From Eubacteriales bacterium (GTDB lineage: Bacteria > Bacillota > Clostridia > Lachnospirales > Lachnospiraceae), in NCBI GenBank assembly GCA_030524715.1, contig JAUNGB010000005.1, positions 34,159 to 98,158 on the forward strand: DNA of 64,000 nt. Direction: 5' to 3'. The position numbers and the translations under genes were made by a program. This document shows positions 16,291 through 39,826 of the stretch, in pieces (within the stretch, counting starts at the first letter, position 1; every line of letters begins with the position of its first letter). The notes under the pieces were generated by a model. It searched no databases. It saw only the letters and a program-made list of their open reading frames with translations, and was not told the DNA's origin.

Positions 16291-16325
16291 TGGGAACAGG
16301 CAATATTAAGGCAGGTGCGAAGCAT

Positions 16326-16955: not shown

Positions 16956-16983
16956 GTAAAAAGGACAGGCGAAATAAAACGAT

Positions 16984-17046: not shown

Positions 17047-17093
17047 ACGAAATATGAGAAGATAAAAAGTACGTGAATAATGAGGTATCAGAT

Positions 17094-17160: not shown

Positions 17161-17226
17161 TAATGATTTTAATAGATAGTAAAAGATGGTTCCTAATGGT
17201 CTCAATGGTCCCAAAGATGGTCTCTA
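17161..17226 (+). other. Short repeated-word spacer
   Basis: No gene is seen. The stretch carries several related words (GATGGTTCCTAATGG, TCTCAATGG, GATGGTCTCTAATGG). It may be debris from a slipped duplication. Confidence 0.4.
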
Positions 17227-17490
17227 ATGGGCTCAACAGATGATCTCTGGAACCATTAATTCGGGAGGAAATATACATGAACAAGAATGCGATAAAGAAA
17301 TTTGCCATAGAAGCAAGAAACTGATTGATTCTGTTACTGACAAAGCTGGCATGCTTGGCATTATTGAAAAATCATGCAGTGAGCCAATTACAAAAGGTGC
17401 AGATTTTGAAGTTTATCAGACTGTGGCAGGAACAGAAGTGACTTTGAATAAAAGACAGCCAGTAATGATAAAGAATTTAAAAGAAAATTG
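17227..17490 (+). pseudogene. 5' stub of a PglX-like DNA methylase, copy 1
   Basis: ATG 17277 starts MNKNAIKKFAIEARN, then a stop; after a small frameshift the next frame continues KLIDSVTDKAGMLGI and ends by 17490. This is the conserved N-terminus of BREX PglX-type adenine methyltransferases, which are normally over 1000 residues, so only about 6% remains. The block 17227-17475 recurs at 28951-29199 with the same length and 13 differences in 249 bases, including the same frameshift, so it was duplicated after decay. Confidence 0.65.
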
Positions 17491-21052: not shown

Positions 21053-21105
21053 TTAGAGTGCTGCAGGAAATAATATAAACGTATAAATGACGATTGGAGA
21101 GCAAT

Positions 21106-22338
21106 ATGGGGAAAATCGAGGGAATCAAGATTCAAAATTATGGAGTCCTAAAAGATGTTGTATTAGGAAAAACGAGAACCAACCAATCAGCACGGGCCTT
21201 GAGTAATCTGGTTGCAATTATTGGTCCGAGTGGAAATGGAAAAAGTACGTTGGCAGATGCATTTGGCTTTATAGCAGATTGCCTTGAAATGGGAGTAGAG
21301 GCCGCTTGCGATGCAAATAATCGTGGAGGGTTTGAAAGGCTTATTTCGCAGGGGACGACTGAGCCTATTTTGTCTGAATTGTACTACAGGGAATCAAGCA
21401 ATACACGCCCCATTACGTATGAGCTGGAGATTGATTTAGACAGGATGGGACGTCCTTATGTAAAAAGAGAGAGACTTCGCCAGAGGGTAGAACGGCATGG
21501 ATGGCCAAGAAGTTTTATGTATCTGCAGGACGGAAAAGGGTATGCTTTTGAGGGAAATGATGACGGAGGTCAGGATGATGACGGAAACATTATTGGAAAA
21601 AAAGTGGATGTGCAGCTTTCCGATATTCGTCGTCTCGGAATCGTTACTTTGGGAGCAATGAAACAATATAACCGTATTGAAAAATTTCTTAACTTTTTAA
21701 GAAGCTGGTATTTGTGTTATTTTTCTCCGGATGCAGCAAGAAGAATCCAGGCAGCAGCCCCACAGGCATATCTTGATCGGATTGGCAGCAATATAAATAA
21801 TGTGGCGCAGTATATGTATCGGGAAAACAGAAAAGAATTTGAAAAAGTTTTGCAGGAAATCCAGTCAAAACTTCCCGGGATTGAAAAAATTGAACCTCAG
21901 AAATTTGAAAATGGGCAAATGATGCTGCGCTTTTATGAAAAAGGTTTCAAGAACCCATTTTATTCGCAGCGGATGTCAGATGGGACTTTAAAGCTTTTTG
22001 CCTATTATTTGCTGCTTCATGAAAAGAATCCGCGTCATCTGGTATTCATTGAAGAGCCCGAAAATGGATTATATCATCATTATTTAGGAGATCTTGCAGA
22101 AGAAATGAAAAAGGGAGCAGGAAATGGATTCTCCAAACAATTGTTCATTACAACTCACAGCCCGTTCTTTGTTAATGCATTGGGACCAGACGATGTATGG
22201 GTGTTGACAAAAGGTGAAGATGGTTATTCAAAAATCAAAAGAGCTTCCGAATTTGCTTTTGTAAAGGAACTGGCAGAGGAAGGCGTACCTGTGGGAGATA
22301 TGTGGTATAGCAGATATTTTGAAAGCACGGAGGAATAA
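21106..22338 (+). CDS. AAA (AAA_21-type) ATPase
   Basis: A 410-residue RecF/SMC-like ATPase. Walker A is GPSGNGKST (residues 40-48), the signature SQRMSDGTLKLFAYYLL, Walker B LVFIEEPENGLYHH (E316-E317) and the switch TTHSPFFVNAL. This architecture accompanies DUF4276- or TOPRIM-like effectors in abortive-infection pairs. GGAGA precedes ATG 21106. The next gene, starting at the base after the stop, looks like such a partner but is decayed, and a third gene downstream has a frameshift. So the ATPase is intact while its module is probably dead or depends on partners elsewhere. Confidence 0.88.
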   Translation: MGKIEGIKIQNYGVLKDVVLGKTRTNQSARALSNLVAIIGPSGNGKSTLADAFGFIADCLEMGVEAACDANNRGGFERLISQGTTEPILSELYYRESSNTRPITYELEIDLDRMGRPYVKRERLRQRVERHGWPRSFMYLQDGKGYAFEGNDDGGQDDDGNIIGKKVDVQLSDIRRLGIVTLGAMKQYNRIEKFLNFLRSWYLCYFSPDAARRIQAAAPQAYLDRIGSNINNVAQYMYRENRKEFEKVLQEIQSKLPGIEKIEPQKFENGQMMLRFYEKGFKNPFYSQRMSDGTLKLFAYYLLLHEKNPRHLVFIEEPENGLYHHYLGDLAEEMKKGAGNGFSKQLFITTHSPFFVNALGPDDVWVLTKGEDGYSKIKRASEFAFVKELAEEGVPVGDMWYSRYFESTEE

Positions 22339-22505: not shown

Positions 22506-23090
22506 AGAAGAAAGTGGATTAAAGTTCGGATTTCCGGATGATAACATTGCGATTAAGTTTGATGATACAAAATACTATCGTGATTTATTTAATGCACTTT
22601 CAGGATCGAAAGGCGTAGATTTTATTTCTGTGGGAAAAGATACGATATCCTTTATTGAAGTAAAAATTGTCTGGGAGATGAAGGCAATTGCCGTTGGAGA
22701 ATTTTTTCCAATAATCAAAAACGAAACACTACATCAACAACAGTCGATACGGAAGGCCGGGAGAGTCTTGGTATAGAAGTGTCTCAGAAGGTCGCGATGA
22801 CTTTGGCGGCATTGGCTGGTGCGAGGTCTTTTGGAGATAGAAAATCGTCATTGAATGATAGGAAAGAAATAATAACTACAGTACTTTCAGAAGATTTTGC
22901 GGATGATAAAAAGACAAAGTATGTAATTTTATTTTTAGAAGGAAACTTTGGCGGACATACACGAACAAAAAAGATGATTATGGAAGAACTGCAGAGAAGC
23001 ATGAATACAAAGATGAGATGGTTGAACTGCAGAGTGTCGGTTGCGGATTCTTCTACATATAATAAAAATATTTTTCAAATTGTATCATAA
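22495..23090 (+). pseudogene. Unknown third gene of the ATPase module, frameshifted
   Basis: ATG 22495 opens MEIREESGLKFGFPDDNIAI and continues in one frame to GKDTISFIEVK. The reading then shifts at an A5 run (22662-22666): inserting one A joins smoothly to LGDEGNCRWRIF and a frame running to the stop at 23090 (AGARSFGDRKSS, then VILFLEGNFGGHTRTKK). The joined protein would be about 198 residues. The Asp/Glu/Lys pattern FISVGKDTISFIEVKN recalls a PD-(D/E)XK-like core, which is speculative. It is either a true single-base deletion, a slippage site or a sequencing error. Confidence 0.7.
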
Positions 23091-23116
23091 AGAGATGGAT
23101 TACTTAGGAGAAAACG

Positions 23117-23263
23117 ATGAACAGGACAGCGATAAAAAATTTTGCAATATGGGGAAGAAATAAGCTCATTGCCGATATTACATATAAAGCAGGACTGATT
23201 GATGTGAATAAGATAAGAATATCCTCTAAAATGTCGCCTGGTATGCGACCAGGAAAGGACTGA
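23117..23263 (+). pseudogene. 5' stub of a PglX-like DNA methylase, copy 2
   Basis: A 48-codon reading frame starts MNRTAIKNFAIWGRNKLIAD and continues ITYKAGLI, the PglX N-terminus, then turns into unrelated sequence that includes the recurring GTCGC hairpin. Here the NKLI part is in frame, unlike the other two stubs. TAGGAG precedes the ATG, so the short peptide may still be translated. Confidence 0.65.
23232..23251 (+). repeat. Recurring GTCGC hairpin, copy 1
   Basis: TGTCGCCTGGTATGCGACCA, a 5-bp stem GTCGC/GCGAC with a 7-nt loop. Identical at 27401-27420 and with one change at 34004-34023. Confidence 0.75.
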
Positions 23264-23624: not shown

Positions 23625-23680
23625 AGTAGCTGTGAAAAATTCAAACTGGATTTAGAATAGGAACATGCTCTAAGGCAGGT

Positions 23681-24319: not shown

Positions 24320-24347
24320 GCAAAAAGGAAAGGCGAAATAAAACGCT

Positions 24348-24409
24348 GGAAAATCACTCGAACACCATTTTTTGATACTCAAAGATACGATTCTATGTTA
24401 CAATGATAT
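24348..24409 (+). promoter_or_regulatory. Repeated promoter, copy 2
   Basis: Same block as at 16984-17046, with the extended -10 TATGTTACAAT at 24394-24404. It would drive the DUF262-AAA-HNH genes starting 85 bases downstream. Confidence 0.65.
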
Positions 24410-24493
24410 AGACAACATGAAGAAGATAAAAAGTACGTGAATAATGAGGTATCAGGTATGGCGGTATCTTATGGAGACGGGGAGGAGTTATTT

Positions 24494-26516: not shown

Positions 26517-26519
26517 AAT

Positions 26520-27360: not shown

Positions 27361-27395
27361 CCGGAGTTTGGTTAAGCAAAAAGGAAAGGCGAAAT
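27361..27395 (+). pseudogene. Last codons of a third HTH border copy
   Basis: CCGGAGTTTGGTTAAGCAAA and the following 15 bases match the 3' end and downstream flank of the HTH gene copy at 23681-24319 (24305 onward) almost exactly. Everything before is gone. It shows that a third border stood here. Confidence 0.75.
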
Positions 27396-27400
27396 GTCAA

Positions 27401-27525
27401 TGTCGCCTGGTATGCGACCAACTCAGTTGGTTCTGTATATAAAATGTGATTATAAACGATCGAAAGGTAAGCCCGTAAGGGGATACCACTATGATCTGAA
27501 AAGCGATCAGGAAAGGAGTAATCAC
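27401..27525 (+). ncRNA. Structured leader before the VWA gene
   Basis: Four hairpins follow each other: GTCGC/GCGAC (27402-27418), ACCAAC/GTTGGT (27418-27432), a two-part stem GGTA..CCC/GGG..TACC (27466-27487) and GATC/GATC (27494-27508). A ribosome site and ATG 27526 follow directly. The first hairpin recurs twice elsewhere. It may be a cis-regulatory leader or small RNA; no known riboswitch was recognised. Confidence 0.45.
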
Positions 27526-28194
27526 ATGAATACAGGATTAACGGAGTTGGTTTTTATTTTGGACAGAAGCGGTTCTATGGGAGGACTGGAGAGAGATACG
27601 ATCGGCGGATTTAATGGAATGCTTGCGAGACAGAAGTCAGAGGGAAAGCAGGTGAATGTGACGACAGTGCTGTTTGATGATCAGGTGGAGATTATCCATG
27701 ATCGGTTCCCCATTGAGATTATCGAGCCTTTGACAGAAAAAGAATATTATGTCCGGGGCTGTACGGCGCTGCTGGATGCGGTGGGGGCAGCGATAGAAAA
27801 GATCGACAATGTCCAGAAACATCTTCCGGAAGCCCATAAAGCTGAAAAAGTTATTTTTGTCATTACAACAGACGGATTGGAAAATTCCAGTGAGAGCTTT
27901 ACCTATGAACAGATCAGGAAAAAAATTAGTGCAAAAAAAGAATGCGGATGGGAATTTTTGTTTCTTGGCGCTAATATCGATGCCGGGAAAGAGGCGGAAA
28001 AGATCGGGATTGCCCGTAACCGTTCTGTAACCTATGAAAATGACCCGGAAGGCGTTGCCATCAATTTTAGAGCCGTAGGCAGGGCAGTGTCAAAGGCAGT
28101 ACAGGCAGACAGTATGGAAGAAGTATTTGACGGCAACTGGTCAGAGGAAATCGCAGAGCATAAGAAAAACAGCCGTGGCAGGAAGAGAGGATAA
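27526..28194 (+). CDS. VWA-domain protein
   Basis: A 222-residue von Willebrand factor A protein. The metal-binding MIDAS is complete: DRSGSM near residue 13, Thr in GCTALLDAV, and Asp in TTDGLENSS. Such proteins bind partners through a metal ion. AGGAAAGGAG precedes ATG 27526; the basic C-terminus (KKNSRGRKRG) may contact nucleic acid. It ends three bases before the NYN gene, so the pair is co-expressed. It differs from the TerY-type VWA at 35941. Cytoplasmic, no signal peptide. Role inferred as sensor or scaffold for the nuclease-like partner. Confidence 0.88.
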   Translation: MNTGLTELVFILDRSGSMGGLERDTIGGFNGMLARQKSEGKQVNVTTVLFDDQVEIIHDRFPIEIIEPLTEKEYYVRGCTALLDAVGAAIEKIDNVQKHLPEAHKAEKVIFVITTDGLENSSESFTYEQIRKKISAKKECGWEFLFLGANIDAGKEAEKIGIARNRSVTYENDPEGVAINFRAVGRAVSKAVQADSMEEVFDGNWSEEIAEHKKNSRGRKRG

Positions 28195-28197
28195 GGT

Positions 28198-28863
28198 ATG
28201 TATTTTCTGGTGGATTTTGAAAATGTAAGAAGCGGCGGACTCCGTGGTGTAGACTATCTGGAAGTGAGCGATTATCTCACCATATTCTTCAGTAACGCCG
28301 CCCATAGCTGCGAAAGCAGATATTTGGAGGATATTGAGAGATCGGGCTGTCATTTTGATACATGCAAGCTGAAAAAGACAGGAAAGAATGGTCTGGATTT
28401 CTATATTGCCTCAAGAGTGGGAGAATTTTATGGCGCCGGTCATAAAGACCAGGTGGCGATTATCAGTAAAGATCAGGGATACAAGGCAGTGCGTGATTAT
28501 TGGGATGTGAGGTTGCCATCCAACAACAAAATTATCATATCCCCATCCGTCGAGAGAGGTCTGATAGCCAGTAATGATAACAGTGACAGGGTAAAACGCC
28601 TGAAGGAAAAACTGGCGGGAGTGGACATTGATGTGTTTCAGGCAAGATATGACGAGCGAATGAGACTACAGGAGATTCTGAGACAAATCTTCGGTGAAAC
28701 AGATTATGCCAGCAAAATGCCGGAAATCCAGAATATGATGGAAACAGCTAAGACACCGAAGATTATTTACCTGAATTCTCTGCACCGCTTCGGGAAAAAA
28801 CAGGGGCTTGAAATATACAGACAGATAAGATCTGTGATACATCAAAATGCCGCACAGGCATGA
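28198..28863 (+). CDS. NYN/PIN-like nuclease
   Basis: A 221-residue protein with the NYN (PIN-like) acidic pattern: MYFLVDFENV at the N-terminus (D6), NGLDFYIASRVG in the middle (D near 66) and IISKDQGYKAV (D near 92). These proteins are metal-dependent ribonucleases. The C-terminal ~75 residues are a separate charged helical region (DERMRLQEILRQIF) whose DNA is copied at 19381-19541. It starts three bases after the VWA stop. The VWA+NYN pair resembles a small defence or RNA-processing module; I know no named system with exactly this composition. Confidence 0.82.
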   Translation: MYFLVDFENVRSGGLRGVDYLEVSDYLTIFFSNAAHSCESRYLEDIERSGCHFDTCKLKKTGKNGLDFYIASRVGEFYGAGHKDQVAIISKDQGYKAVRDYWDVRLPSNNKIIISPSVERGLIASNDNSDRVKRLKEKLAGVDIDVFQARYDERMRLQEILRQIFGETDYASKMPEIQNMMETAKTPKIIYLNSLHRFGKKQGLEIYRQIRSVIHQNAAQA

Positions 28864-28948: not shown

Positions 28949-28950
28949 TA

Positions 28951-29257
28951 ATGAGCTTAATAGATGATCTCTGGAACCATTAATTCGGGAAGAAATATAC
29001 ATGAACAAGAATGCGATAAAGAAATCTGCTATAGAAGCAAGAAACTGATTGATTCTGTTACTGACAAAACTGGCATGCTTGGCATTACTGAAAAATCATG
29101 CAGTGAGCCAATTACCAAAGGTGCAGATTTTGAAGTTTATCAGGCTGTGGCAGGAATAGAAGTGATTTTGAATAAAAGACGGCCAGTAATGATAAAGAAC
29201 TATGTATTTATGTCAGCTAAAAGAAGACAGAGAAGTGCTGCTGTGAGTATTTTATAA
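28951..29257 (+). pseudogene. PglX-like stub copy 3 joined to the PIN-gene 3' end
   Basis: Bases 28951-29199 duplicate the stub at 17227-17475 with the same frameshift. At 29203-29234 comes an exact 32-base copy of the PIN gene's 3' end (VFMSAKRRQR). In the first copy these two pieces are separated by the whole AAA-PIN cassette. So this is a deletion scar, or the state before that cassette came in. Confidence 0.75.
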
Positions 29258-29286: not shown

Positions 29287-30537
29287 ATGGATTTGAATGC
29301 TTTACAATCCATCCTTACTATCGGAGAAAACGTTGCAGTTGAATTCAAACGTTGCGGCAATGAAATTGAATCAGATACCTATGAAACAGTATGTTCTTTC
29401 TTAAATCGTTTTGGTGGCGATCTTTTCATGGGAGTACTTGATGACGGAACTGTTGTAGGGGTACCAGAAAAGGCAGCACCTGATATGGTGAATAATTTTA
29501 TAAAAGTGATAAGTAATCCGACACTGTTGACACCTACGGTATATCTAATCCCCGAGATTATCAAATATGATGAAAAGCGAATCATTATTCATGTTCATAT
29601 TCCGCCAAGTGCAGAGGTTCACAGCTACAAGAAAGTTATATATGATCGGGTAGATGATGCGGATGTGAAGGTGACTGCTACTGGTGCGATTGCTCAGATG
29701 TATATTCGCAAACAGAACATCTTCACAGAAAAGAAAATATTTCCATATGCGAAAATGGAAGATTTACGGTTGGATTTACTACCTAAAATTCGGATAATGG
29801 CACAGAATCATGCAGGCGGACAGCATCCATGGACAGCTATGGATGATCAGGAATTACTGAAAAGTGCAGGATTATATGGGCGTGATATAGCAACCGGAGA
29901 AGAGGGCTATAATCTTGCTGCAATTATGTTACTGGGTAAAGACGATGTGATTCTGAATGTGGCACCAGCCTATGTGACGGATGCACTTGTTCGGAAGGTG
30001 AATGTGGATCGGTATGATGACCGTGAGATTATTAAAACAAATTTGATTGAAAGTTACGACAGGCTGCTTGAATTCGGAAGAAAGCATTTGCCGGACAAGT
30101 TCTTTTTGGAAGATACGGTAAACAAGAGTCTGAGAAACACGATTGTGAGAGAAATGGTTAGCAATACTTTGATGCATCGGGAATTTTCCAGTAGTTATAC
30201 GGCAAAGTTTGTCGTTGAAAAAGATAAGATGTATGTGGAAAATGCAAACCGCGCATTGAAGGAAGGGTATATTACGGTGGATAATCTGGAGCCAAATCCG
30301 AAGAATCCGATCATAGCTTCATTTTTTCGAAATATAGGATATGCGGATCAACTTGGTTCTGGTGTCCGCAATTTGTTCAAGTACAGTAAGTACTATTCCG
30401 GACAGGAACCGCAGTTTATAGAAGGCGATGTGTTCCGAATTATTGTGCCTCTGGATGATGAATACTCCTTTGACTTTGGTTTGGTGAAGTCAGAGAGTGG
30501 TATCAGTGATACCAACAGTTTGCTAAATGAGACTTAA
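29287..30537 (+). CDS. AlbA_2 (Schlafen-like) / HATPase_c_4 protein, C-terminally cut
   Basis: A 416-residue protein. Residues about 10-130 are an AlbA_2 (Schlafen-type) domain (ENVAVEFKRC, FLNRFGGDLFMGVLDDGTVVGV), residues about 260-370 a GHKL-like ATPase region with REMVSNTLMHRE (the N-box) and GSGVRNLF. Relatives carry a C-terminal winged helix; here TAA 30535-30537 stops the frame, and the winged helix continues in the same frame in the next entry. So the gene is a nonsense mutant, a split gene, or read through. GGGAGGTG precedes the ATG. The family is linked to regulation and anti-phage islands; biochemical role not established. Confidence 0.85.
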   Translation: MDLNALQSILTIGENVAVEFKRCGNEIESDTYETVCSFLNRFGGDLFMGVLDDGTVVGVPEKAAPDMVNNFIKVISNPTLLTPTVYLIPEIIKYDEKRIIIHVHIPPSAEVHSYKKVIYDRVDDADVKVTATGAIAQMYIRKQNIFTEKKIFPYAKMEDLRLDLLPKIRIMAQNHAGGQHPWTAMDDQELLKSAGLYGRDIATGEEGYNLAAIMLLGKDDVILNVAPAYVTDALVRKVNVDRYDDREIIKTNLIESYDRLLEFGRKHLPDKFFLEDTVNKSLRNTIVREMVSNTLMHREFSSSYTAKFVVEKDKMYVENANRALKEGYITVDNLEPNPKNPIIASFFRNIGYADQLGSGVRNLFKYSKYYSGQEPQFIEGDVFRIIVPLDDEYSFDFGLVKSESGISDTNSLLNET

Positions 30538-30549
30538 AATGCCGATAAA

Positions 30550-30798
30550 ATGCCGATAGATGAGACTAAAAGTGCGACTAATGCGACCAAAAGTGCGACT
30601 GAACTTGAATTAACTGAATATGAAAAAAAGATTTTATCTGTGCTAAAGAAGAACCCTCGAATCACACAAAAGAAACTCCACGAAGCGACAGGGATTTCAT
30701 TAGGAACAATTAAGAGAATACTTCCAAGGTTACAGGAAAAAGGTGTGCTTATAAGAAATGGCAGCAGGCGTTCTGGTCAGTGGGAGATACAGAAATGA
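30550..30798 (+). CDS. Winged-helix piece, in frame with the upstream AlbA_2 gene
   Basis: An 82-residue piece with a clear winged HTH (NPRITQKKLHEATGISLGTI, then RILPRLQEKGVLIR). Preceding it are KSATxATKSAT repeats that look like the linker of the AlbA_2 protein. It is in the same frame, 12 bases after that gene's TAA. No good ribosome site is seen, so it would be made by re-initiation or readthrough, or not at all. Confidence 0.6.
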   Translation: MPIDETKSATNATKSATELELTEYEKKILSVLKKNPRITQKKLHEATGISLGTIKRILPRLQEKGVLIRNGSRRSGQWEIQK

Positions 30799-30822: not shown

Positions 30823-32886
30823 ATGGACGAATTTATGGAAATGGATGATACCAGATTAATAATAAAGAACAAATTACGTCAGTACTTTGATGGAAAGATT
30901 GTTCGCAAGGATCTAACAAAGCATATTAAAGAAGGAGCCAATGTACCTGTTTATGTGTTGGAGTTTCTTCTTGGTCAGTATTGCAGCTCGGATGATGAAG
31001 AGATCATCGAAGAGGGTGTGAATAATGTAAAACGTATTCTGGCGGATAATTTTGTACGTCCGGATGAAGCGCAGAAGGTGCTTTCTATTCTTCGGGAACG
31101 TGGCAGTTATACAGTTATTGATAAGATTACGGTTCATCTGAATATTAAAGAGGATCGATATGAGGCGGAGTTTTCTAATTTGGGTATCAAGAATATTCCA
31201 ATTCATCCAGATTATCCGTCAAAATATGACCGCCTCCTTTGTGGCGGTATTTGGTGTATCTTGCAGTTGGATTATGAATTTATCGAGGAAGATAAGAAGA
31301 ATACAACACCGATCCGTATTCGTAAATTGACGCCGATTCAGATGCCGCATATTGATATGGATGAAATAAAGAGCGGGCGTAAAGCATTTACGAAAGAGGA
31401 ATGGATGGATGTTTTGCTGCGTTCTATTGGTATGGAACCGGATTTTTTAAATGAAAGAGAAAAGTGGATTTTATTTCTTCGCATGGTTCCGTTGGTTGAA
31501 AATAATTACAATTATTGTGAATTAGGTCCGAGAAGTACTGGTAAATCTCACATCTATAAAGAGATTTCGCCAAATAGTATTTTGGTTTCCGGTGGACAGA
31601 CTACGGTCGCAAATTTGTTTTATAATATGGCTTCAAAGCAGATTGGACTGGTAGGCTTATGGGATTGCGTAGCATTTGATGAGGTTGCCGGTATCACATT
31701 TAAAGATAAAGATGGTATTCAGATAATGAAGGACTATATGAACTCAGGTTCATTTAATCGCGGGCGTGAGGAAAAAGCAGCATCTGCATCTATGGTTTTT
31801 GTGGGAAATATTAATCAAAGTGTGGATGTTTTATTGAAGACATCGCATCTCTTTGAACCTTTTCCAGAGATGATGGCTTATGATACGGCATTTCTTGATA
31901 GAATACATTGTTATGCTCCGGGGTGGGAAATGAATCCATACCGTCCTAATAAATTTACAAATGATTATGGATTTATTACAGATTATTTTTCTGAATTTGC
32001 AAGACAAATGAGAAAAGAACAGTTTGGAGATGTAATAGAAAAATATTTCAGATTGGGGTCAAATTTAAATCAAAGGGATACTGTTGCAGTAAAGAAAACA
32101 GTTGGCGGGTTGGTTAAATTGATCTATCCAGACGGAGAGGTTACAAAGGATGAAGTAGAAGAATTATTGAAAATTGCGTTGGAAATGCGCCGCAGAGTAA
32201 AAGAACAGTTGAAAAAAATCGGCGGCATGGAATTTTATGATGTAAATTTCTCTTATATAGACAATGAGACTTTTGAAGAGCGCTATGTTTCCGTACCAGA
32301 ATCCGGTGGCGGGAAACTGATACCGGAAGGAATGAGCAATCCGGGCAATATTTATACGGTATCCAGAGGAAAATCCGGTATGATTGGTGTTTATCGTTTG
32401 GAGACACAGGTGCTTCCGGGAAATGGGAAATTTGAACGGACAGGTATCGGCACAGACCGTGATGCAAAGGAAGCAACAAATACAGCCTTCAATTATCTGA
32501 AAGCCAATGGTAATTCGATCTCAGGAGCAATCAGTACCACAACAAAAGACTATATTATCAATTATCAGGACTTGAATGGATTGGGAATTACCAGTAAACT
32601 GGCGCTTCCAACTTTGATTGCTATATGTTCGGCGGCATTAGGAAAGCCTACGCTTAGCAGTCTGGCAATACTTGGTGAGATCAGTATCAGTGGAACATTG
32701 ATTAAAGTAGAAGAACTGGCAAATGTGTTTCAGGTGTGCCTGGATAGTGGTGCGAAAAAAGTATTGCTTCCGATTACTTCCGCAGGAGATATCGGAACCG
32801 TACCATCTGATCTGGTAGGTGCATTTAGCTTGATTTTTTACTCTACTCCGCAGGAGGCAGTATTTAAAGCGCTTGGTGTGGAATAA
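30823..32886 (+). CDS. brxL: BREX Lon-like protein BrxL
   Basis: A 687-residue AAA+ protein matching BrxL in length and layout. An N-terminal ~220-residue region is followed by the ATPase: Walker A GPRSTGKS at 235-242, Walker B-like FDEVAGI and a DRIHCYAPGWE segment. The last ~170 residues have a Lon-protease fold (LGEISISG, GAKKVLLPITSAGD). I see no clear Ser-Lys dyad at the usual Lon positions, so proteolysis is doubtful. BrxL is known as a DNA-binding ring ATPase of BREX phage defence. GAGAGGAGAG precedes the ATG. No brxA, brxB, brxC or pglZ is present, and pglX survives only as stubs. It heads a run of seven tightly spaced genes. Confidence 0.9.
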   Translation: MDEFMEMDDTRLIIKNKLRQYFDGKIVRKDLTKHIKEGANVPVYVLEFLLGQYCSSDDEEIIEEGVNNVKRILADNFVRPDEAQKVLSILRERGSYTVIDKITVHLNIKEDRYEAEFSNLGIKNIPIHPDYPSKYDRLLCGGIWCILQLDYEFIEEDKKNTTPIRIRKLTPIQMPHIDMDEIKSGRKAFTKEEWMDVLLRSIGMEPDFLNEREKWILFLRMVPLVENNYNYCELGPRSTGKSHIYKEISPNSILVSGGQTTVANLFYNMASKQIGLVGLWDCVAFDEVAGITFKDKDGIQIMKDYMNSGSFNRGREEKAASASMVFVGNINQSVDVLLKTSHLFEPFPEMMAYDTAFLDRIHCYAPGWEMNPYRPNKFTNDYGFITDYFSEFARQMRKEQFGDVIEKYFRLGSNLNQRDTVAVKKTVGGLVKLIYPDGEVTKDEVEELLKIALEMRRRVKEQLKKIGGMEFYDVNFSYIDNETFEERYVSVPESGGGKLIPEGMSNPGNIYTVSRGKSGMIGVYRLETQVLPGNGKFERTGIGTDRDAKEATNTAFNYLKANGNSISGAISTTTKDYIINYQDLNGLGITSKLALPTLIAICSAALGKPTLSSLAILGEISISGTLIKVEELANVFQVCLDSGAKKVLLPITSAGDIGTVPSDLVGAFSLIFYSTPQEAVFKALGVE

Positions 32887-32908
32887 AAGTTGAGAGGTGG
32901 TGAGCCTG

Positions 32909-34000
32909 TTGTTTGAACAGGATTTTGAAGAGATGCTTCGGAAACATCAGGCATCTCTGGATGATAGAAAGAAATTTACAGCGCTGGTGAAGGATTTATT
33001 CCCGGATCAGGCGAAGAATGTGAACTTGCTTTTGATGGCTTATAACATGGGAATCGCACAGGATATTGAGATGGCGTCCCATATCAACAATACTTTTGCT
33101 TTCCGATATGTAAAGCAGCTGATGGATGATTTTGGAATGAGTCGTGTCAATGCAGACTGGATTGTTTCGGTATGGTGTTCCTGCTATGGAGCGAATGTGC
33201 TGGGAAAAGCCTGTGATATTTCCGTACAGAAGCAGGGAAGCGGACCGGCGATTCAGGGAGAACAGCCATCTTCTGGAAAGGCATATGGGGATCTTTTTAC
33301 TTATGAAAAAAGTCGCAGGGGAAAAGGTCTTGCAGTTACAGGCTTTCGGGGGAAAAAGAATCAGACGATTATTTTTCAGAACAGATCCGGGAATACACCG
33401 GTGATTGAGATCGCAGATAACAGTTTCAGCAATTCGCCCATCGAGGAAGCCATTTTGACCGAGGGAATAGCGTGTATTGGAAGGAATTCTTTTTCAGGCT
33501 GTGATAAACTGCATCAGGTGGTTTTGCCTGTGAGTATAGAAGAGATAGAAGATGGTGCTTTTGAGAACTGTGGCAGCTTGAAATCTATTTCTCTTCCTAT
33601 GGCATTAAAGACGATAGGTGATGGAGCGTTGAAAGGAACGGGACTTCGGACAGTTGAGATTCCCAAAAGCGTGTTCTGGCTGGGAGATGGTCTGATGGCA
33701 GAATGTAAGTCATTGGATCATGTGGCGATACCTGAGAATATTGGCAGAATACCAGATCGTATGTTTGAAGGCTGTACAAGTTTAAAAAAAGTAGAATTGC
33801 ATGAGAATCTGGGAGCGATTGGAGATGGTGCATTTTTCGGCTGCAGCTCATTGGATTTTCTGATTATTCCGGATAGTGTGAAGCTGATTGGGCAGGACGC
33901 ATTTACCGGTACGGATAAGCAATTTATTATCCAATGTTCCTTTGGTTCTTATGCAGAGGAATATGCCAGAAAGAATAGGATCAAGTATCAGCTTGTGTAA
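32909..34000 (+). CDS. BspA-type leucine-rich-repeat protein
   Basis: A 363-residue protein. The N-terminal ~95 residues are helical and unrecognised (FEQDFEEMLRKHQ). After a linker, residues about 150-350 form six LRR_5 repeats (IEDGAFENCGSLKSISLP, IGDGAFFGCSSLDFLIIP), a binding scaffold often used for partner recognition. I place the start at TTG 32909, 8 bases after GAGAGGTGG; GTG 32897 is the longer option. It starts about 20 bases after brxL. No signal peptide, unlike many BspA surface proteins, so it acts inside the cell, plausibly as a target-recognition subunit in this operon (inference). Confidence 0.85.
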   Translation: MFEQDFEEMLRKHQASLDDRKKFTALVKDLFPDQAKNVNLLLMAYNMGIAQDIEMASHINNTFAFRYVKQLMDDFGMSRVNADWIVSVWCSCYGANVLGKACDISVQKQGSGPAIQGEQPSSGKAYGDLFTYEKSRRGKGLAVTGFRGKKNQTIIFQNRSGNTPVIEIADNSFSNSPIEEAILTEGIACIGRNSFSGCDKLHQVVLPVSIEEIEDGAFENCGSLKSISLPMALKTIGDGALKGTGLRTVEIPKSVFWLGDGLMAECKSLDHVAIPENIGRIPDRMFEGCTSLKKVELHENLGAIGDGAFFGCSSLDFLIIPDSVKLIGQDAFTGTDKQFIIQCSFGSYAEEYARKNRIKYQLV

Positions 34001-34003
34001 GAT

Positions 34004-34023
34004 TGTCGCCTGATATGCGACCA
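34004..34023 (+). repeat. Recurring GTCGC hairpin, copy 3
   Basis: TGTCGCCTGATATGCGACCA, one base different (A for G) from the copies at 23232 and 27401. It begins 3 bases after the leucine-rich-repeat gene and before the PH-like gene. Confidence 0.75.
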
Positions 34024-34069
34024 TACCAGACAAAACAGGCGGTAGGATAAAAGGAAAGAGGTGATGTAC

Positions 34070-34579
34070 ATGGGATTTTTCGACGCCCTGTTTGGAAATA
34101 AAAATCAGATTCCGACAGTTACATCTATCTTTCCAGCAGCGGCAAGGAACGAGATCATGTCCGGAAGACTTCCGATCCTGAATACAGATCAGTTGTTCCT
34201 GAAGCGTGGCGAAAAGATTCATTTTATTGATAAAGCAGTCAATCTGGAAGAAAAGACGGTGAAGCAGTACCGTCATTATGGGCACAGCATGCCTGGATTG
34301 TTTAAAGGAACAAGGTGGAACTCCGGTTATGGAAAAACGATCGAACATACAGAACTGGTGCAGCACCGGGGAATCCTGTACGTCACAAACCAGAGGGTCG
34401 TATTTCAGGCAAAGGAATGGGGATTTGATAAGACGTATGGTTATCTTACAGCAATTACGCCATACAGTAACGCCTGTGAGATGCAGTTTGGAAATAAAAG
34501 CTATTGTCTGGTAGTTGCAGACGGAAATGTATTGTATCAGGCATTACAGTTGATAAAGCAGAGGAGGCAGATACCGTAA
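34070..34579 (+). CDS. PH-like domain protein of the kinase operon
   Basis: A 169-residue protein. Its second half has the beta-strand pattern GILYVTNQRVVFQAKEWGF, typical of bacterial PH-like domains, which bind lipids or peptides. The start at ATG 34070 follows AAAGAGGTGATGTAC; ATG 34064 and GTG 34061 are alternatives. Its TAA overlaps the ATG of the kinase gene (TAATG), indicating translational coupling and probably a partner role with the kinase. No catalytic motif or membrane segment seen. Confidence 0.75.
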   Translation: MGFFDALFGNKNQIPTVTSIFPAAARNEIMSGRLPILNTDQLFLKRGEKIHFIDKAVNLEEKTVKQYRHYGHSMPGLFKGTRWNSGYGKTIEHTELVQHRGILYVTNQRVVFQAKEWGFDKTYGYLTAITPYSNACEMQFGNKSYCLVVADGNVLYQALQLIKQRRQIP

Positions 34580-35877
34580 TGGAAGGACAGTTAAAAAATG
34601 GAACCATTCTTACATCGGAATGTGGGAATAAATATGAGATCGCAAGCCTTCTGGGGGCTGGCGGCCAGGGAGAAGTGTATGATGTGAAATGTAATGGCGT
34701 CCATTACGCACTGAAATGGTATTTCAAAGGAAGCGCCACAGCCAGGCAGAAGAAGATTTTGGAAACTATCGTTGCCAAGGGTTCTCCGGAGCCGTGTTTT
34801 TTGTGGCCAATGGAAATGATTGTCCCGGCACAGGGAGAACTGTTTGGTTATATTATGCCTCTTAGACCAAAGAATTATAAGAGCATCGTGGATCTGATGA
34901 AGAAGAGGGTCAATCCATCCTTTTATACACTGTGCAGGACGGCGTTTAATCTGACCAGAGGATACCAGAAATTACACGCTATGGGGGCAAAATATCAGGA
35001 TATTTCCTTTGGAAATCTGTTTTTCAATCCGGACAACGGTGATGTGCTGATCTGTGATAATGACAATGTTTCTTTTGATAACAGCAAGCCGGGCGGGGTA
35101 CTTGGCACACCTGGCTTTATGGCTCCGGAAATTGTCCGGGGCGAGAAAAGACCGTCGAAGGATACGGACCGCTATTCCTTGTCTGTTCTGCTGTTTTATC
35201 TTTTTATGGTCAATCATCCGCTGGAAGGGAAGATGGAAGCAAGTATCAAATGTATGGATATGGCTGCCAGAGTGAAACTGTACGGAACAGATCCGGTATT
35301 TATTTTTGATCCGGATAATAAGTCCAACAGACCGGTGAAGGGTATTCATGATAATGCCAATATCTATTGGCCGTTGTATCCGGAAAAACTCCGTCAGATG
35401 TTTACAAAAGCCTTTACTGTTGGATTAAATGAGCCGAGTAAGCGTATCACGGAGCCGGAATGGATGACGCTGTTTGCAAATATGATGAGCGGAATGCTGC
35501 GCTGCTCCTGCGGGGCACAGCTCTTTTATGATGAGGATTTGGAAGCTAAAGGTGCCGCCCATATTTGCTGGAATTGTCAGAACGTGGTTCCGGTACCGAA
35601 GAAGCTGATCATTGGAAAGAACCGTATATTGCTGTATCAGGATACAAAATTGGCGCACCATCATGTGTACGAGGATTTTGATATGGATACGGTAGTGGGC
35701 AGTGTGGTACAGAATCCGAAGAATCCTGCCATTTGGGGTATCAGGAACGAAGACAAAATGAACTGGACCTATCAGAAAGCGGATGGAACGCAGATTCCGG
35801 TGGAACCCGGACGGACGGCCGGCATTGCAAAAGGTGTAAAAATTATTTTCCCCCAGACGATGGGTGAATTCAAATAA
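34579..35877 (+). CDS. Ser/Thr protein kinase of a TerY-P type triad
   Basis: A 432-residue kinase. The glycine loop GAGGQG is at 26-31, the ATP-binding Lys is K46 (YALKW), the catalytic loop is YQDISFGN (D141, with Tyr replacing His of HRD) and the metal-binding DFG equivalent is D160 in CDNDN. GTPGFMAPEI is the activation-segment end. C-terminal to the kinase (about 305-335) is a zinc ribbon (CSCG...CWNC), then a beta-rich domain. This form is known from TerY-P triads, where kinase, TerY-like VWA and PP2C phosphatase act together, and here the next two genes are exactly those. It starts within the upstream stop codon. Confidence 0.92.
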   Translation: MEGQLKNGTILTSECGNKYEIASLLGAGGQGEVYDVKCNGVHYALKWYFKGSATARQKKILETIVAKGSPEPCFLWPMEMIVPAQGELFGYIMPLRPKNYKSIVDLMKKRVNPSFYTLCRTAFNLTRGYQKLHAMGAKYQDISFGNLFFNPDNGDVLICDNDNVSFDNSKPGGVLGTPGFMAPEIVRGEKRPSKDTDRYSLSVLLFYLFMVNHPLEGKMEASIKCMDMAARVKLYGTDPVFIFDPDNKSNRPVKGIHDNANIYWPLYPEKLRQMFTKAFTVGLNEPSKRITEPEWMTLFANMMSGMLRCSCGAQLFYDEDLEAKGAAHICWNCQNVVPVPKKLIIGKNRILLYQDTKLAHHHVYEDFDMDTVVGSVVQNPKNPAIWGIRNEDKMNWTYQKADGTQIPVEPGRTAGIAKGVKIIFPQTMGEFK

Positions 35878-35940
35878 TGCCCCAAAAAGTCACTTGGGGA
35901 TTTAGAAAAAATGTAAGTAAACTGAAGGAGGATCAGGTTA

Positions 35941-36713
35941 TGCAGGAATTACAGAGACCAGGCGGAGAACTGGCGACAAGACCGATACATTTCTTTTGGG
36001 TGGTGGACTGTTCGGGCTCCATGTATGGAGAAAAAATAGGGATTGTGAATAATACAATCCAGGAATGCATCCCGGAAATGAGAAATTCAGCAGATAATAA
36101 TCCGAACGCACAGTTGTTGATCCGGGCGCTTCAGTTTTCATCCGGTGCAAGCTGGATTACCTCTAATCCGGTGCCGGTAGAAAATTATAGTTGGGAGGAC
36201 ATGGAAGCAAAGGGACTGACAGAGCTTGGTAAGGCATTTGACCTGCTTGCTGCACAGCTTTCAATTCCGCCAATGCCGGCAAGGGCATTGCCGCCGGTGA
36301 TCGTGCTTTTGTCCGATGGTCAGCCAACGGATGATTATAAGAAAAGTCTGGATAAATTAAAAGCTATGCCCTGGTTTCGGAAAGCGGTGAAGATTGCTAT
36401 TTCCATCGGACAGGATGCGGACGATGAAGTCCTGATCGAATTTACCGGAAATAAAGAACTGGTTCTGCAGGCAAATAATGCGACTGCACTTGCAAAAATG
36501 ATCAAATGGGCATCTACCACTGCATCCATGGTGTCTGCTCCTTCCAGTAAACCGATGAATTCCGTTCCGGCATCTGCGCCAAACGCATCCACACCGTCTG
36601 CTTCTGTACCTGCCGATGATCCGTTTGTACCGGCAAATAATGGGGCGCCGTTGGTACTTGATATGAGTAATATTCCGAATCCTGATGATTTTGATGAGGG
36701 AGCTGTTTGGTAA
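35941..36713 (+). CDS. TerY-type VWA protein
   Basis: A 257-residue VWA protein, second member of the triad. MIDAS motif DCSGSM is at 23-28, with Thr in GLTELGKAF and Asp in LLSDGQPTD. The last ~60 residues are Ser/Ala/Pro-rich and disordered. I prefer ATG 35941 because AAGGAGGATCAGG lies before it; ATG 35877, overlapping the kinase stop (TAATG), would add 21 residues. TerY-like proteins are thought to be phosphorylated by the kinase and dephosphorylated by the PP2C partner, acting as a switchable scaffold. That assignment comes from known triads and gene order. Confidence 0.9.
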
Positions 36714-36726
36714 GGGAGGGAATTGG

Positions 36727-37563
36727 ATGAAACGCTATTTATGTGACGGTATTGTTAAAGGCGCCGCCCACCAGAGAAACGGATTGCCATGCCAGGACAG
36801 CAAAAAGATTGTCGAGATATCCGAAGATATTGTGATTATCGCAGTTGCGGACGGACACGGAAGTGAAAAATGTCCCAGAAGCGACAGAGGGGCTACTATT
36901 GCCGTAAATACCTTCTGTGAAGTGATGAAAAATTACCTGCAAAGCTACGATACTGATGAAGCCGGTCTGCCGAACCTGATTACTTTCCTGAATCGGGAAG
37001 GGGACATGCGTTTTGCACAGGATATCTGTGAGGAATGGCAGGCAAGAGTAAAGCAATCTTATTATAAAAACAAAGAAGAGGGAATGCTGGATGACGCCGG
37101 GAACATCAAATGGCCGGCAGTCTATACTCTTTATGGCACGACCTTGCTGGGAATGTTGATTACAAATACCTTTGTTTTTTCTTTCCAGATTGGAGATGGC
37201 GACATCAGTCTGGTTACGGAAGACGGCGTGTTTGCACTGGTGGAGCCGGAAAAGTTTCTGGGGACGGAGACACATTCTCTGTCCAAACCGGATGCATGGC
37301 GAAAAGCGGCGGCTTCTATCCGGCGAAGAGATGGAGAAGATAAAAAATCCTGTATGTATATGTTATCTACAGATGGGTTTGCAAATAGTTATACGTCAGA
37401 TGAAGAATTTCAGAAAACGTGCAGTGATTATTATGGTATGATACAGGAGCATGGAGCAGAGACGGTTCAGGCAAATTTAAAGAAATGGTTGACAGAAACC
37501 AGTGAATTGGGCTGTGGGGATGACATTACGGTGGTAATGGCATATTTTGAGGGCGAACAGTAA
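36727..37563 (+). CDS. PP2C-family protein phosphatase
   Basis: A 278-residue metal-dependent phosphatase, third member of the triad. Metal-binding Asp residues lie in ADGHGSEK (D42), IGDGDISLV (about D157), STDGFANS (about D216) and GCGDDITVV near the end. It opposes the kinase two genes upstream. GGGAGGG precedes ATG 36727, 13 bases after the VWA stop. No signal or membrane segment. The N-terminal GAAHQRNGLPCQDS is typical of PP2C proteins in phosphorylation-defence operons. Confidence 0.92.
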   Translation: MKRYLCDGIVKGAAHQRNGLPCQDSKKIVEISEDIVIIAVADGHGSEKCPRSDRGATIAVNTFCEVMKNYLQSYDTDEAGLPNLITFLNREGDMRFAQDICEEWQARVKQSYYKNKEEGMLDDAGNIKWPAVYTLYGTTLLGMLITNTFVFSFQIGDGDISLVTEDGVFALVEPEKFLGTETHSLSKPDAWRKAAASIRRRDGEDKKSCMYMLSTDGFANSYTSDEEFQKTCSDYYGMIQEHGAETVQANLKKWLTETSELGCGDDITVVMAYFEGEQ

Positions 37564-37577
37564 AGCTGTTTGCCTTT

Positions 37578-38663
37578 ATGAGAAAGTATAGAAGTGGATT
37601 GCGAATAAAAGCTAATGCAAAGGAAAAGGGAGAAGGTGCTCTGGTGATCGTGGACCGCTATTATTACCATCAACTGAATAAGCAGGATCAGGCGGTTTAT
37701 CGTGCGTTTTATGATGGGGTAATGGCTCATCAGGACATTATTCCTATTCCTGTCAGGGGTGTTTTTCCAAAAGAAGCATTTGAACGGATTTTTGCCGCAA
37801 TGACAAAAGATAATCCTCTGATTTATTATCTGAACCAGTCTGCCTGCAGCTATGCCAGCGATATGTTTAGACACTTTGCTATTTGTCCGCAATATTTTTT
37901 CTCAAAAGAAAAGGTAAAAGAGTATAACCGGAAAATAGAAAAAGAAGTGAACTCTCTTGCAGGTAAGTTAAATCTGACTTCAGGTACAGACTATGAAAAA
38001 GAAATAAAAATTCATGACTGGTTCTGCCGGAATATTTCATATGATGAGGAAGGGATTGACAGAAGTAAACCGATGCGGATGATTGCTTCCCATAATATTT
38101 TTGGAGTATTTGCACATCACCGGGCACAATGTGAAGGAATTGCAAAAGCGGTGAAAGTATTACTAAACGCAGTTGATGTAAGGTGTATTGTGGTGACCGG
38201 CCAATCAATGAAAAACGGGAAAACGGTTCCTCATGCCTGGAACCTGGTTAATATAGACGGACAGCCCTATCATCTTGATGTTACATGGGATATAGGCGCT
38301 ATCGGATCATCTTTCAAAAGGATTCCGTATGATTATTTTAATTTGTCTGATCAATTGATAATCAAAGAACATAATGCAGATACACAGCTTCCCTCGTGTT
38401 CCTCAATGCAGTATAATTACTTTAAAGTGAATAAAAAAGCGTTTTGGATGAAAAGTCAAGCGCTTGCATATGTAGAGAAGGCCCTTCAAAAGGGAGATAC
38501 AGAATTTTATTTCCGGATGGAAGGGAAAAATGCTGCTTCCGACATGGCAGAAAAGATTTATGATCGGATATGCGCCTTCTTTTTAGAAAAGGGGATTACG
38601 GATAAAAGGGTAAAACGAATTGCAAATGATAAGATAGGTACCTGTTGGATAAAAATTTATTGA
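37578..38663 (+). CDS. Transglutaminase-like (cysteine protease fold) protein
   Basis: A 361-residue protein. The transglutaminase-core triad is visible: C185 in QCEGIAKAV, H219 in VPHAWNLV and D234 in HLDVTWD. In bacteria this fold usually makes cysteine peptidases. No signal peptide, so it is cytoplasmic, unlike many members. It follows PP2C by 14 bases and closes the seven-gene run. ATG 37578 has a poor ribosome site; GTG 37644 after GGGAGAAGGTG is a possible shorter start. In context it may be the effector protease switched by the kinase-phosphatase pair (inference). Confidence 0.82.
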   Translation: MRKYRSGLRIKANAKEKGEGALVIVDRYYYHQLNKQDQAVYRAFYDGVMAHQDIIPIPVRGVFPKEAFERIFAAMTKDNPLIYYLNQSACSYASDMFRHFAICPQYFFSKEKVKEYNRKIEKEVNSLAGKLNLTSGTDYEKEIKIHDWFCRNISYDEEGIDRSKPMRMIASHNIFGVFAHHRAQCEGIAKAVKVLLNAVDVRCIVVTGQSMKNGKTVPHAWNLVNIDGQPYHLDVTWDIGAIGSSFKRIPYDYFNLSDQLIIKEHNADTQLPSCSSMQYNYFKVNKKAFWMKSQALAYVEKALQKGDTEFYFRMEGKNAASDMAEKIYDRICAFFLEKGITDKRVKRIANDKIGTCWIKIY

Positions 38664-38707: not shown

Positions 38708-38731
38708 TTCAGTGGAATGCAGGAGGGCGAT

Positions 38732-39826
38732 ATGCAGCTAGAATATATTGAACTGGAAAACTTTAAAGCGATTGAAAGAGCACGGATTGAATTTAATGGA
38801 AAGAGCTCGGTTATCTTTGGAATCAATGGTACTGGAAAGTCTACAATTCTTCGGTCAATTAATTTGTTGTATGCAAACATTATCAATCAGATTGTGAATA
38901 GAAAAGAATTACGACAAAATTATACAATACAATTAGAAGATATACAAAATGGAAAAAAAGAAACAAAAATAGAAGCATTAATAGACCTTGAAGGGGAAAA
39001 GATACCATATTACCGAAGGATGGTTCGTAATACAGGGAAAAAATGTCATGATAAGGATTCCCTCAAGAAGATTGCTGATATTTTTCATGAAAAATATATT
39101 ACGGACAAAATGCAAAAAGACATTCCTGTTTTTGTTAATTATGGAACTAATAGGCTTGTGTTGGACATTCCTTTGCAGATGCGTACGCATCATACGTTTG
39201 ATATTTATTCTGCTTTTGAAAAGGCGATTGAAAATAAAATTGATTTTCGGACATTTTTTGAATGGTATCGTAATCAGGAAGATTACGAAAACGAACAAAA
39301 AATTGAAACTGGAGATTTAAGTTATCAGGATCGTTCCTTGAATGCGGTAAGAACTGCAGTTTTATCTATGTTGGATGAGTGTTCTAATTTAAGAATAGCC
39401 CGTAAGCCGCGTTTAGAGATGAAAATTGATAAGGGGAATATCAGATTAAATGTTTCTCAGATGTCTGACGGAGAAAAATGTACATTGGCTTTATTGGGGG
39501 ATTTGGCAAGGCGACTGACCTTAGCAAACCCCAATAAAGAAAATCCGTTATTAGGGGAAGGAATTGTTTTGATTGATGAAATAGAACTCCATATGCATCC
39601 ATCATGGCAGAGAAAAGTTTTAAGTACTTTAAAAACTACTTTTCCTAATATACAGTTTATTGTGACAACGCATTCACCGATTATTTTAAGTGAGGCAAAT
39701 GAAGATTATAATTTATTCCTTATGAATAATGAGGATAACAGTATTAAAGTAACTCCTAAAGGGCAAATGAATGGATATGACGCAAATACAGTTTTAGAGC
39801 AGTTTACTGGCTGTATTATAATGTGA
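38732..39826 (+). CDS. AAA (AAA_21/RecF-like) ATPase, single
   Basis: A 364-residue ATPase. Walker A GINGTGKST (30-38), signature QMSDGEKCTLALL, Walker B IVLIDEIELHMHP (D282-E283) and switch TTHSPIIL. It resembles PtuA-like or retron-associated ATPases, but no HNH or other effector follows; the next gene is an antiporter on the ordinary chromosome side. GGAGGGCGAT precedes ATG 38732. It is clearly A+T-rich. It may work alone, with one of the orphan effectors in the island, or be what is left of a pair. It marks the right end of the island. Confidence 0.86.
   Translation: MQLEYIELENFKAIERARIEFNGKSSVIFGINGTGKSTILRSINLLYANIINQIVNRKELRQNYTIQLEDIQNGKKETKIEALIDLEGEKIPYYRRMVRNTGKKCHDKDSLKKIADIFHEKYITDKMQKDIPVFVNYGTNRLVLDIPLQMRTHHTFDIYSAFEKAIENKIDFRTFFEWYRNQEDYENEQKIETGDLSYQDRSLNAVRTAVLSMLDECSNLRIARKPRLEMKIDKGNIRLNVSQMSDGEKCTLALLGDLARRLTLANPNKENPLLGEGIVLIDEIELHMHPSWQRKVLSTLKTTFPNIQFIVTTHSPIILSEANEDYNLFLMNNEDNSIKVTPKGQMNGYDANTVLEQFTGCIIM

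What the first reader, a model, noticed from the sequence alone, without database searches (positions are those of the whole stretch)
30823..38663. Seven-gene operon joining BrxL to a kinase-VWA-PP2C triad, a leucine-rich-repeat protein and a transglutaminase-like protein
Seven genes run on one strand with gaps from overlap to about 70 bases: brxL, LRR, PH-like, Ser/Thr kinase, TerY-type VWA, PP2C, transglutaminase-like. BrxL is the ring ATPase of BREX, but no other intact BREX gene is present, so it seems recruited into a phosphorylation switch with a possible cysteine protease effector. TerY-P triads are known; I know no described system that pairs them with BrxL, an LRR recognition-like protein and a transglutaminase fold. 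The idea that LRR or BrxL senses, the kinase/phosphatase switches the VWA, and the protease executes is inference.
Basis: partly seen in the sequence, partly recalled or inferred. Interest (0 to 1): 0.87.

Follow-up and report, generated by a model that had tools for sequence, protein, structure and literature searches.

The report
BREX tail with a TerY-P switch
A bacterium has lost the central genes of a BREX antiviral system but keeps its brxL gene together with a six-gene kinase/phosphatase cassette that, in relatives, sits behind BREX genes.

Summary
The seven genes are real, intact and tightly packed at 30823-38663, and their linkage is conserved. It is not a BrxL-only system. In 8 of 80 BrxL relatives the cassette (LRR adaptor, PH-like protein, zinc-ribbon kinase, TerY-type VWA, PP2C, transglutaminase-like TGL; L010 lacks PH-like, L006 lacks TGL) follows brxL. 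Seven of the 8 carry pglZ upstream; the eighth contig stops 39 nt before brxL. One relative (L113/L010) has all of BrxA, BrxB, BrxC, PglX, PglZ, BrxL plus cassette. The cassette is thus a 3' accessory module of one clade of type 1 BREX. The window is the exception: pglX scraps, a BREX-associated ATPase, a split Schlafen-HTH gene, brxL and the cassette remain. Close cassettes without a neighbouring brxL exist (L098, L109, and L097 as far as its short contig shows). My literature searches found no description of it, but TerY-P and BREX are both reported around CoCoNuT systems. Most likely it is a phosphorylation-gated companion defence with TGL as probable effector; that mechanism is inferred. 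Novelty: new variant of a known kind.

The parts
30823..32886 (+). brxL (687 aa), type 1 BREX DNA-binding AAA+ ring protein with Lon-like C-terminus; Walker A kept
   Evidence: solved homologue 8emc, E=3.8e-271; Walker A
32897..34000 (+). LRR protein: N-terminal adaptor domain (about 115 aa) plus BspA-type LRR_5; no hydrophobic N-terminus
   Evidence: adaptor profile; hydropathy
34070..34579 (+). PH-like small protein (ORF 34061-34579), no family or convincing PDB hit; missing in L010
34579..35877 (+). Ser/Thr kinase with C-terminal zinc-ribbon cysteines (TerY-P type)
   Evidence: kinase-ZnR definition from PMC11090510
35940..36713 (+). TerY-type VWA protein (ORF from 35877), MIDAS-type DxSxS residues and conserved C-terminal tail
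36727..37563 (+). PP2C phosphatase (ORF from 36685)
37644..38663 (+). Transglutaminase-like thiol enzyme (ORF from 37578), no hydrophobic N-terminus, Cys-His-Asp kept
   Evidence: PDB 9crn E=9.7e-26
29287..30798 (+). Schlafen/AlbA-HTH gene, one 502-aa ORF in L010, split here by an in-frame stop (29287-30537 and 30550-30798)
28949..29199 (+). pglX 5' scrap with upstream flank (r3), frameshifted
22992..23236 (+). pglX 5' scrap (r2), L010 type, about 40 codons from 23117, with upstream flank
17225..17475 (+). pglX 5' scrap with upstream flank (r1), 94.8% identical to r3
21094..22338 (+). Intact HEC-01A-type ATPase; 84% identical copy lies between brxC and pglX in L113
22401..22498 (+). Tail scrap of a second BREX-embedded ATPase (HEC-02A type in L113)

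Best explanation
The unit is the surviving 3' end of a type 1 BREX island: brxL plus a TerY-P accessory cassette that one clade of BREX systems, in Lachnospiraceae and related Clostridia, carries behind brxL. The kinase (with zinc ribbon) and PP2C set the phosphorylation state of the VWA protein and/or the LRR adaptor; the LRR and PH-like proteins give recognition or docking; the transglutaminase-like thiol enzyme is the probable effector (protease or protein cross-linker). Beside a complete BREX it would be a companion or backup layer; in the window it persists without the core. Shown here: anatomy, conserved linkage, loss of the core, cassettes without a neighbouring brxL, conserved catalytic residues. 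Inferred: that it defends against phage, direction of signalling, the effector role. Of these, history and identity about 0.85, phospho-switch function about 0.6, TGL as effector about 0.4.
For: Cassette directly 3' of brxL in 8 of 80 BrxL loci, pglZ upstream in 7 of the 8 and 39 nt of contig in the 8th (in L006 only an 83-aa pglZ piece at the contig edge). L113/L010 holds BrxA, BrxB, BrxC, PglX and PglZ by PADLOC. All 9 carriers incl. the window lie in one 13-row BrxL clade (support 96 in the quick 81-row tree; 87/90 in the careful 17-row tree); L073 and L080 of that clade keep pglZ and only LRR fragments of the cassette. Same arrangement in genus relatives L107 (pglZ upstream) and L108 (contig ends in brxL). 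The window keeps pieces of the L113/L010 BREX island in order, with the core missing. Own genome: no PF08665 PglZ, PglX only as scraps. Low dN/dS where dS could be computed, 0.026-0.099 for window pairs, though dS is near saturation. TGL in 9 of 10 readable brxL-linked loci and 0 of 7 loci without brxL nearby.
Against: No functional data. The TGL link is one clade, not independent events, and L006 lacks it; L010 lacks the PH-like gene. BrxL of the window breaks 5 of 257 positions otherwise invariant, the most of 81 rows (next 4, median 0), and 6 of 16 relative-rate comparisons call it faster at the 5% level, which hints at relaxed constraint. The BrxC search of the own genome had no positive control, and PF08665 also missed the type 4 PglZ of the same genome. 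No structure prediction could be run.
Confidence: 0.6

Rival explanations
1. One reading: BrxL has become the sensor or scaffold of an autonomous BrxL-TerY-P-LRR-TGL defence system that needs no BREX core.
For: All seven ORFs are intact, although one pglX copy died before a duplication whose copies now differ at 13 of 251 sites; with half of that difference per lineage, neutral ORFs would gain about 8.7 stops, and 0 of 400 runs had none. BrxL and cassette trees are compatible (AU p 0.19).
Against: Among the brxL-cassette loci with a readable upstream side the window alone lacks pglZ (8 others have it). The order of the rearrangements is not settled, so the neutral clock may not apply to brxL. 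BrxL shows signs of mild relaxation. Close cassettes lie without a neighbouring brxL in L098, L109 and, with 680 nt of upstream contig, L097.
Confidence: 0.15
2. The cassette only regulates BREX, e.g. by phosphorylating BrxL, PglZ or BrxB; in the window it is an orphan on its way to decay.
For: Position at the end of BREX operons in one clade; type 2 BREX has a kinase protein, PglW (PMC12839542, passages). Slightly relaxed BrxL.
Against: Copies without a neighbouring brxL in L098, L109, L097; cassette genes of the window are intact and not consistently faster than relatives.
Confidence: 0.2
3. Mere defence-island neighbourhood: independent modules next to each other, no shared function.
For: The island holds many unrelated modules; G+C of LRR to TGL is 0.439 against 0.390 for brxL.
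Against: Same place and order behind brxL in 10 further loci (8; L107, L108), apart from single missing or added genes; one-clade inheritance.
Confidence: 0.15

Closest known systems
TerY-P triads (TerY-like VWA, PP2C, kinase-zinc ribbon), as described in PMC11090510 and found anti-phage in PMC10889362 (passages of both)
   Same: All three genes, kinase with C-terminal zinc-ribbon cysteines; L008 also carries a TerY_C protein by Pfam, with similar ORFs in L005, L007, L098 and a shorter one in L006
   Different: Sits behind brxL of type 1 BREX, with an LRR adaptor, a PH-like protein and a transglutaminase-like protein
Type 1 BREX with auxiliary effectors (PMC12839542; abstract, section 19, part 1 of section 35, passages)
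   Same: brxL in a BREX island; Schlafen-HTH, OLD-type ATPase, PIN and HNH companions are in that catalogue
   Different: Its main text has 0 mentions of TerY, PP2C, LRR or transglutaminase, and vWA only in MoxR context; in the window the core is lost
vWA-MoxR systems with peptidase effectors and GAP1-N2 systems with kinase-ZnR, PP2C and vWA (PMC7159879, passages)
   Same: vWA logic, kinase-ZnR/PP2C/vWA trio, rare transglutaminase-like thiol peptidase effectors
   Different: Pfam showed no MoxR or GAP1-N2 protein among the window proteins scanned; BrxL is the only AAA+ protein in the unit

Membership tests
TerY-P triad | Ser/Thr kinase fused to C-terminal zinc ribbon | tested here: met
   Pkinase E=6.9e-15; cysteines conserved in the C-terminal alignment
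TerY-P triad | TerY-like VWA gene and PP2C gene adjacent to the kinase | tested here: met
TerY-P triad | Match to PADLOC models for the VWA and PP2C members | tested here: inconclusive
   0 PADLOC families for VWA and PP2C; kinase hits PD-T4-6, mad6 and one kinase model, C3a189. Whether the library holds TerY-P models was not checked
TerY-P triad | Anti-phage activity | not testable with these tools
   needs plating
Type 1 BREX system | BrxL with Lon-like C-terminus | tested here: met
Type 1 BREX system | BrxA, BrxB, BrxC, PglX and PglZ present at the locus | tested here: not met
   tblastn of the L112/L113 islands against the window gave only scraps of pglX and no BrxA, BrxB, BrxC or PglZ; no BrxC or PF08665 match in the genome
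Type 1 BREX accessory module | Recurrent position within or next to BREX core genes | tested here: met
   8 of 80 BrxL loci, 7 with pglZ upstream; L107; complete island L113/L010
Transglutaminase-like thiol enzymes | Cys-His-Asp triad | tested here: met
   C185, H219, D234 invariant in 7 of 7; also L107, L108; Transglut_core above cut-off
PH-domain proteins | PH fold | tested here: inconclusive
   No Pfam match and no convincing PDB match; structure server busy

The most novel reading that the evidence does not exclude
A BrxL-gated thiol-enzyme defence: after loss of the BREX core, the DNA-binding BrxL ring, a TerY-P phospho-switch, an LRR adaptor and a transglutaminase-like enzyme form a working system on their own, kept by selection. 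It would be a route by which BREX islands give rise to new defence systems.
Probability: 0.15. Interest if true: 0.75.

Novelty: new variant of a known kind. Interest (0 to 1): 0.5.

Why it matters
It adds a phosphorylation-signalling cassette with a candidate thiol-enzyme effector to the companions of type 1 BREX; the effectors listed in the 2026 catalogue are nucleases. The window and its relatives form a natural experiment: BREX with cassette, BREX with a decayed cassette, cassette without brxL, and brxL plus cassette without core. They let one ask directly which part each module needs.

Tried and rejected
I first read 22401-22498 as the tail of BrxC (note); the fuller locus L113 shows it is the tail of another BREX-embedded ATPase, corrected. 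I suspected that brxL and the cassette have different histories, because window BrxL is nearest L003 and the window cassette nearest L076/L078; the AU test does not reject the matching clade (p 0.19), so I dropped it. Distant PH-like hits in L099, L100 and L101 have no kinase, VWA or PP2C match in the stretches fetched. Two viral-contig scans (kinase, TGL) gave no relatives. TGL matched 10 phage records; I looked at the best only (54%, MT835478.1), which lies among genes that look chromosomal to me; the other nine are under 33% identity and were not examined. Plasmid hits to the kinase: 5 records, all under 60% identity. The paper I recall as the main source on TerY-P (Anantharaman 2012) is not held, so a BREX link described there cannot be excluded.
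Full report
OBSERVATION. The seven ORFs are present, intact and on one strand at 30823-38663. Pfam, NCBIfam and PADLOC identify brxL, an LRR_5 protein, a protein kinase, a VWA protein, a PP2C and a Transglut_core protein; the 172-aa small gene has no family hit, so 'PH-like' is only a resemblance. Starts conserved in relatives give gaps of 10, 69, -1, 62, 13 and 80 nt.

CONSERVED LINKAGE, BUT WITH BREX. A scan of the public genome collection with BrxL gave 457 relatives, of which the best 80 were kept. In 8 of these 80 the cassette follows brxL directly: L003 (contig ends after PP2C), L005, L006 (no TGL), L007, L008, L010 (no PH-like), L076, L078. pglZ lies upstream in 75 of 80; the other five contigs end 39 to 973 nt before brxL. 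Of the 8 cassette loci, 7 have pglZ upstream; for L006 this is only an 83-aa piece at the contig edge, and L005 has 39 nt upstream. A PglZ search of whole genomes found it in 11 of 13 tried, not in those of L005 and L006. The island of L010 was extended upstream (L113); by PADLOC it has BrxA, BrxB, BrxC, PglX and PglZ, so complete type 1 BREX plus cassette exists. In the window's own genus 6 of 64 genomes, own included, have the kinase C-terminus at E<=1e-15. L076 is titled Blautia massiliensis, which suggests the genus of the window.

ONE CLADE. On a quick tree of 81 BrxL proteins all 9 carriers, window included, fall in one 13-row clade (support 96; 5 changes needed against 8.6 in shuffles); the careful 17-row tree gives that clade 87/90. 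The four other rows are L004, L009, L073 and L080. L073 and L080 keep pglZ and LRR fragments, i.e. decayed cassettes; L004 and L009 have other genes behind brxL. Trees of brxL and of four joined cassette proteins are compatible (AU p 0.19). Gain once and loss several times is the simplest reading.

MODULES WITHOUT BRXL NEARBY. The LRR-PH-kinase-VWA-PP2C order occurs without brxL in L097 (4.9 kb contig, 680 nt upstream of the LRR gene, ends in PP2C), kinase-LRR-VWA-PP2C in L098 (62, 29, 66 and 52% identity to the window), and adaptor-kinase-VWA-PP2C in L109. More distant TerY-P loci are L102, L103, L105, L106 and L110. The N-terminal domain of the LRR protein is found next to the triad with different C-terminal parts: LRR_5 (L098, L103), Sel1 (L102), FGE-sulfatase (L105), and others in L106; in L007 it is also fused to a protein encoded just upstream of brxL. 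This points to a shared adaptor that plugs changing recognition parts into the switch. The TGL profile matches 9 of 10 brxL-linked loci with a readable 3' side (not L006; L003 unreadable and left out) and 0 of 7 loci without brxL (L097 left out, truncated); Fisher p 0.0004, or 0.0009 without L103, whose contig ends after its PH-like gene. The loci are related, so these are not true probabilities. A TerY_C protein (Pfam, L008) lies between PP2C and TGL; similar ORFs are in L005 and L007, a shorter one in L006, and one after PP2C in L098; the profile found none in the window.

THE WINDOW LOST ITS BREX CORE. Compared with the complete island L113/L010 (HTH, BrxA, BrxB, BrxC, ATPase and partner, second ATPase, PglX, ATPase, small gene, PglZ, Schlafen-HTH, brxL, cassette), the window keeps in order an HTH scrap (17064-17138), an intact ATPase (21094-22338, 84% over 410 aa), scraps of its partner and of the second ATPase, a pglX 5' scrap (22992-23236), the Schlafen-HTH gene, brxL and the cassette. 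One piece is out of order: stretches at 27399-28056 match DNA that lies before BREX in L113. Two more pglX 5' scraps (17225-17475 and 28949-29199) are of the L111 type; they are 94.8% identical and share the same short frameshifting deletion, so that pglX copy was dead before it was duplicated. The genome shows no PF08665 PglZ, PglX only as scraps and no type 1 BrxC (no positive control), but it has a separate type 4 BREX on contig C64.

IS IT STILL UNDER SELECTION? Pairwise dN/dS of window genes, where dS could be computed (1.2 to 2.6, near saturation), is 0.026-0.099; for PP2C and TGL it could not be computed, and TGL has the highest dN (0.33-0.53). If the 13 of 251 differences between the duplicated pglX scraps arose in place, half of them per lineage, the seven ORFs would have collected about 8.7 stops by chance, and 0 of 400 neutral runs had none; at about a fifth of that rate 20% had none. 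The order of events is not settled and the dead pglX is of another BREX type than the L010-like pieces beside brxL, so this is suggestive only. Against it, window BrxL changes 5 of 257 positions invariant in the other 80, the most of any row, and 6 of 16 relative-rate comparisons call it faster. Cassette proteins show no consistent speed-up.

MECHANISM. BrxL is an ATP-dependent DNA-binding AAA+ protein whose ATPase site is needed for BREX restriction in the Acinetobacter system (PMC10164562, abstract in listing and passages). TerY-P triads are proposed phosphorylation switches associated with restriction systems (PMC11090510, passages) and protect against phage in Pseudomonas (PMC10889362, passages). 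Transglutaminase-like thiol peptidases occur rarely as effectors in vWA systems (PMC7159879, passages). From these the most likely reading is a companion defence module, phosphorylation-gated, with LRR/PH recognition and the TGL as effector, carried by BREX islands. The phospho-switch is a family inference; the effector role is inference from domain type and fast change.

NOVELTY. The 2026 BREX catalogue (PMC12839542; abstract, section 19, part 1 of section 35, passages; supplements not read) lists Schlafen-HTH, OLD ATPases, PIN and HNH companions but has 0 mentions of TerY, PP2C, LRR or transglutaminase in its main text. CoCoNuT systems often include TerY-P, and BREX is reported in the same superoperons, so TerY-P near BREX is not wholly new. 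Searches listed no paper that describes this cassette by title or abstract start; six papers were opened (PMC11090510, PMC12458937, PMC10889362, PMC12839542, PMC7159879, PMC10164562), none read whole. One term of one search was badly formed. Only open-licence papers were searched, and the 2012 TerY paper is not held.

CHANGES AFTER CHECKING. One search confirmed the BREX gene names that were first given by position; one search confirmed the triad Asp in L107, which a too strict pattern had missed.

Noticed in passing
17225-17475, 22992-23236, 28949-29199: Three pglX 5' scraps in one island, from two BREX types; two are near copies sharing a frameshift.
   Followed up: partly
16271-17108 and 23637-24472: 840-bp duplicated block, 96% identical, holding a gene whose homologue lies upstream of BREX in L112.
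   Followed up: partly
29287-30798: Schlafen/AlbA-HTH gene split by an in-frame stop; single ORF in L010.
   Followed up: yes
17545-18816: ATPase matching PADLOC PDC-M07A (429 bits); a TnpB-like gene lies at 19823-20920.
   Followed up: no
24437-27311: GmrSD_N protein, AAA ATPase and a 263-aa Cys-rich gene inserted where the BREX core should be; L111 has a GmrSD_N gene followed by an ATPase-like gene after pglX.
   Followed up: partly
27394-28863: Second VWA gene (below Pfam's cut-off) and a PIN7 gene; a 77% homologue of the VWA gene lies upstream of BREX in L112.
   Followed up: partly
38717-39826: PtuA-like ATPase (408 bits) directly after the TGL; the next gene is a Na+/H+ antiporter, so no PtuB follows it directly.
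   Followed up: no
L104 (own contig C64) 7161-17520: Type 4 BREX by best PADLOC hits: BrxP, BrxC, PglZ, short BrxL.
   Followed up: partly
L105 6000-7253: TIR-zinc ribbon-Sel1 gene near a TerY-P triad and an FGE-type adaptor protein.
   Followed up: no
L007 8759-9931: Protein upstream of brxL whose C-terminus is the same adaptor domain as in the LRR protein, beside a 2145-aa DUF4011 protein with AAA and REase_MTES_1575 domains.
   Followed up: partly
L114 (MT835478.1): Record labelled phage that ends in a PP2C-TGL pair among genes that look chromosomal to me.
   Followed up: partly
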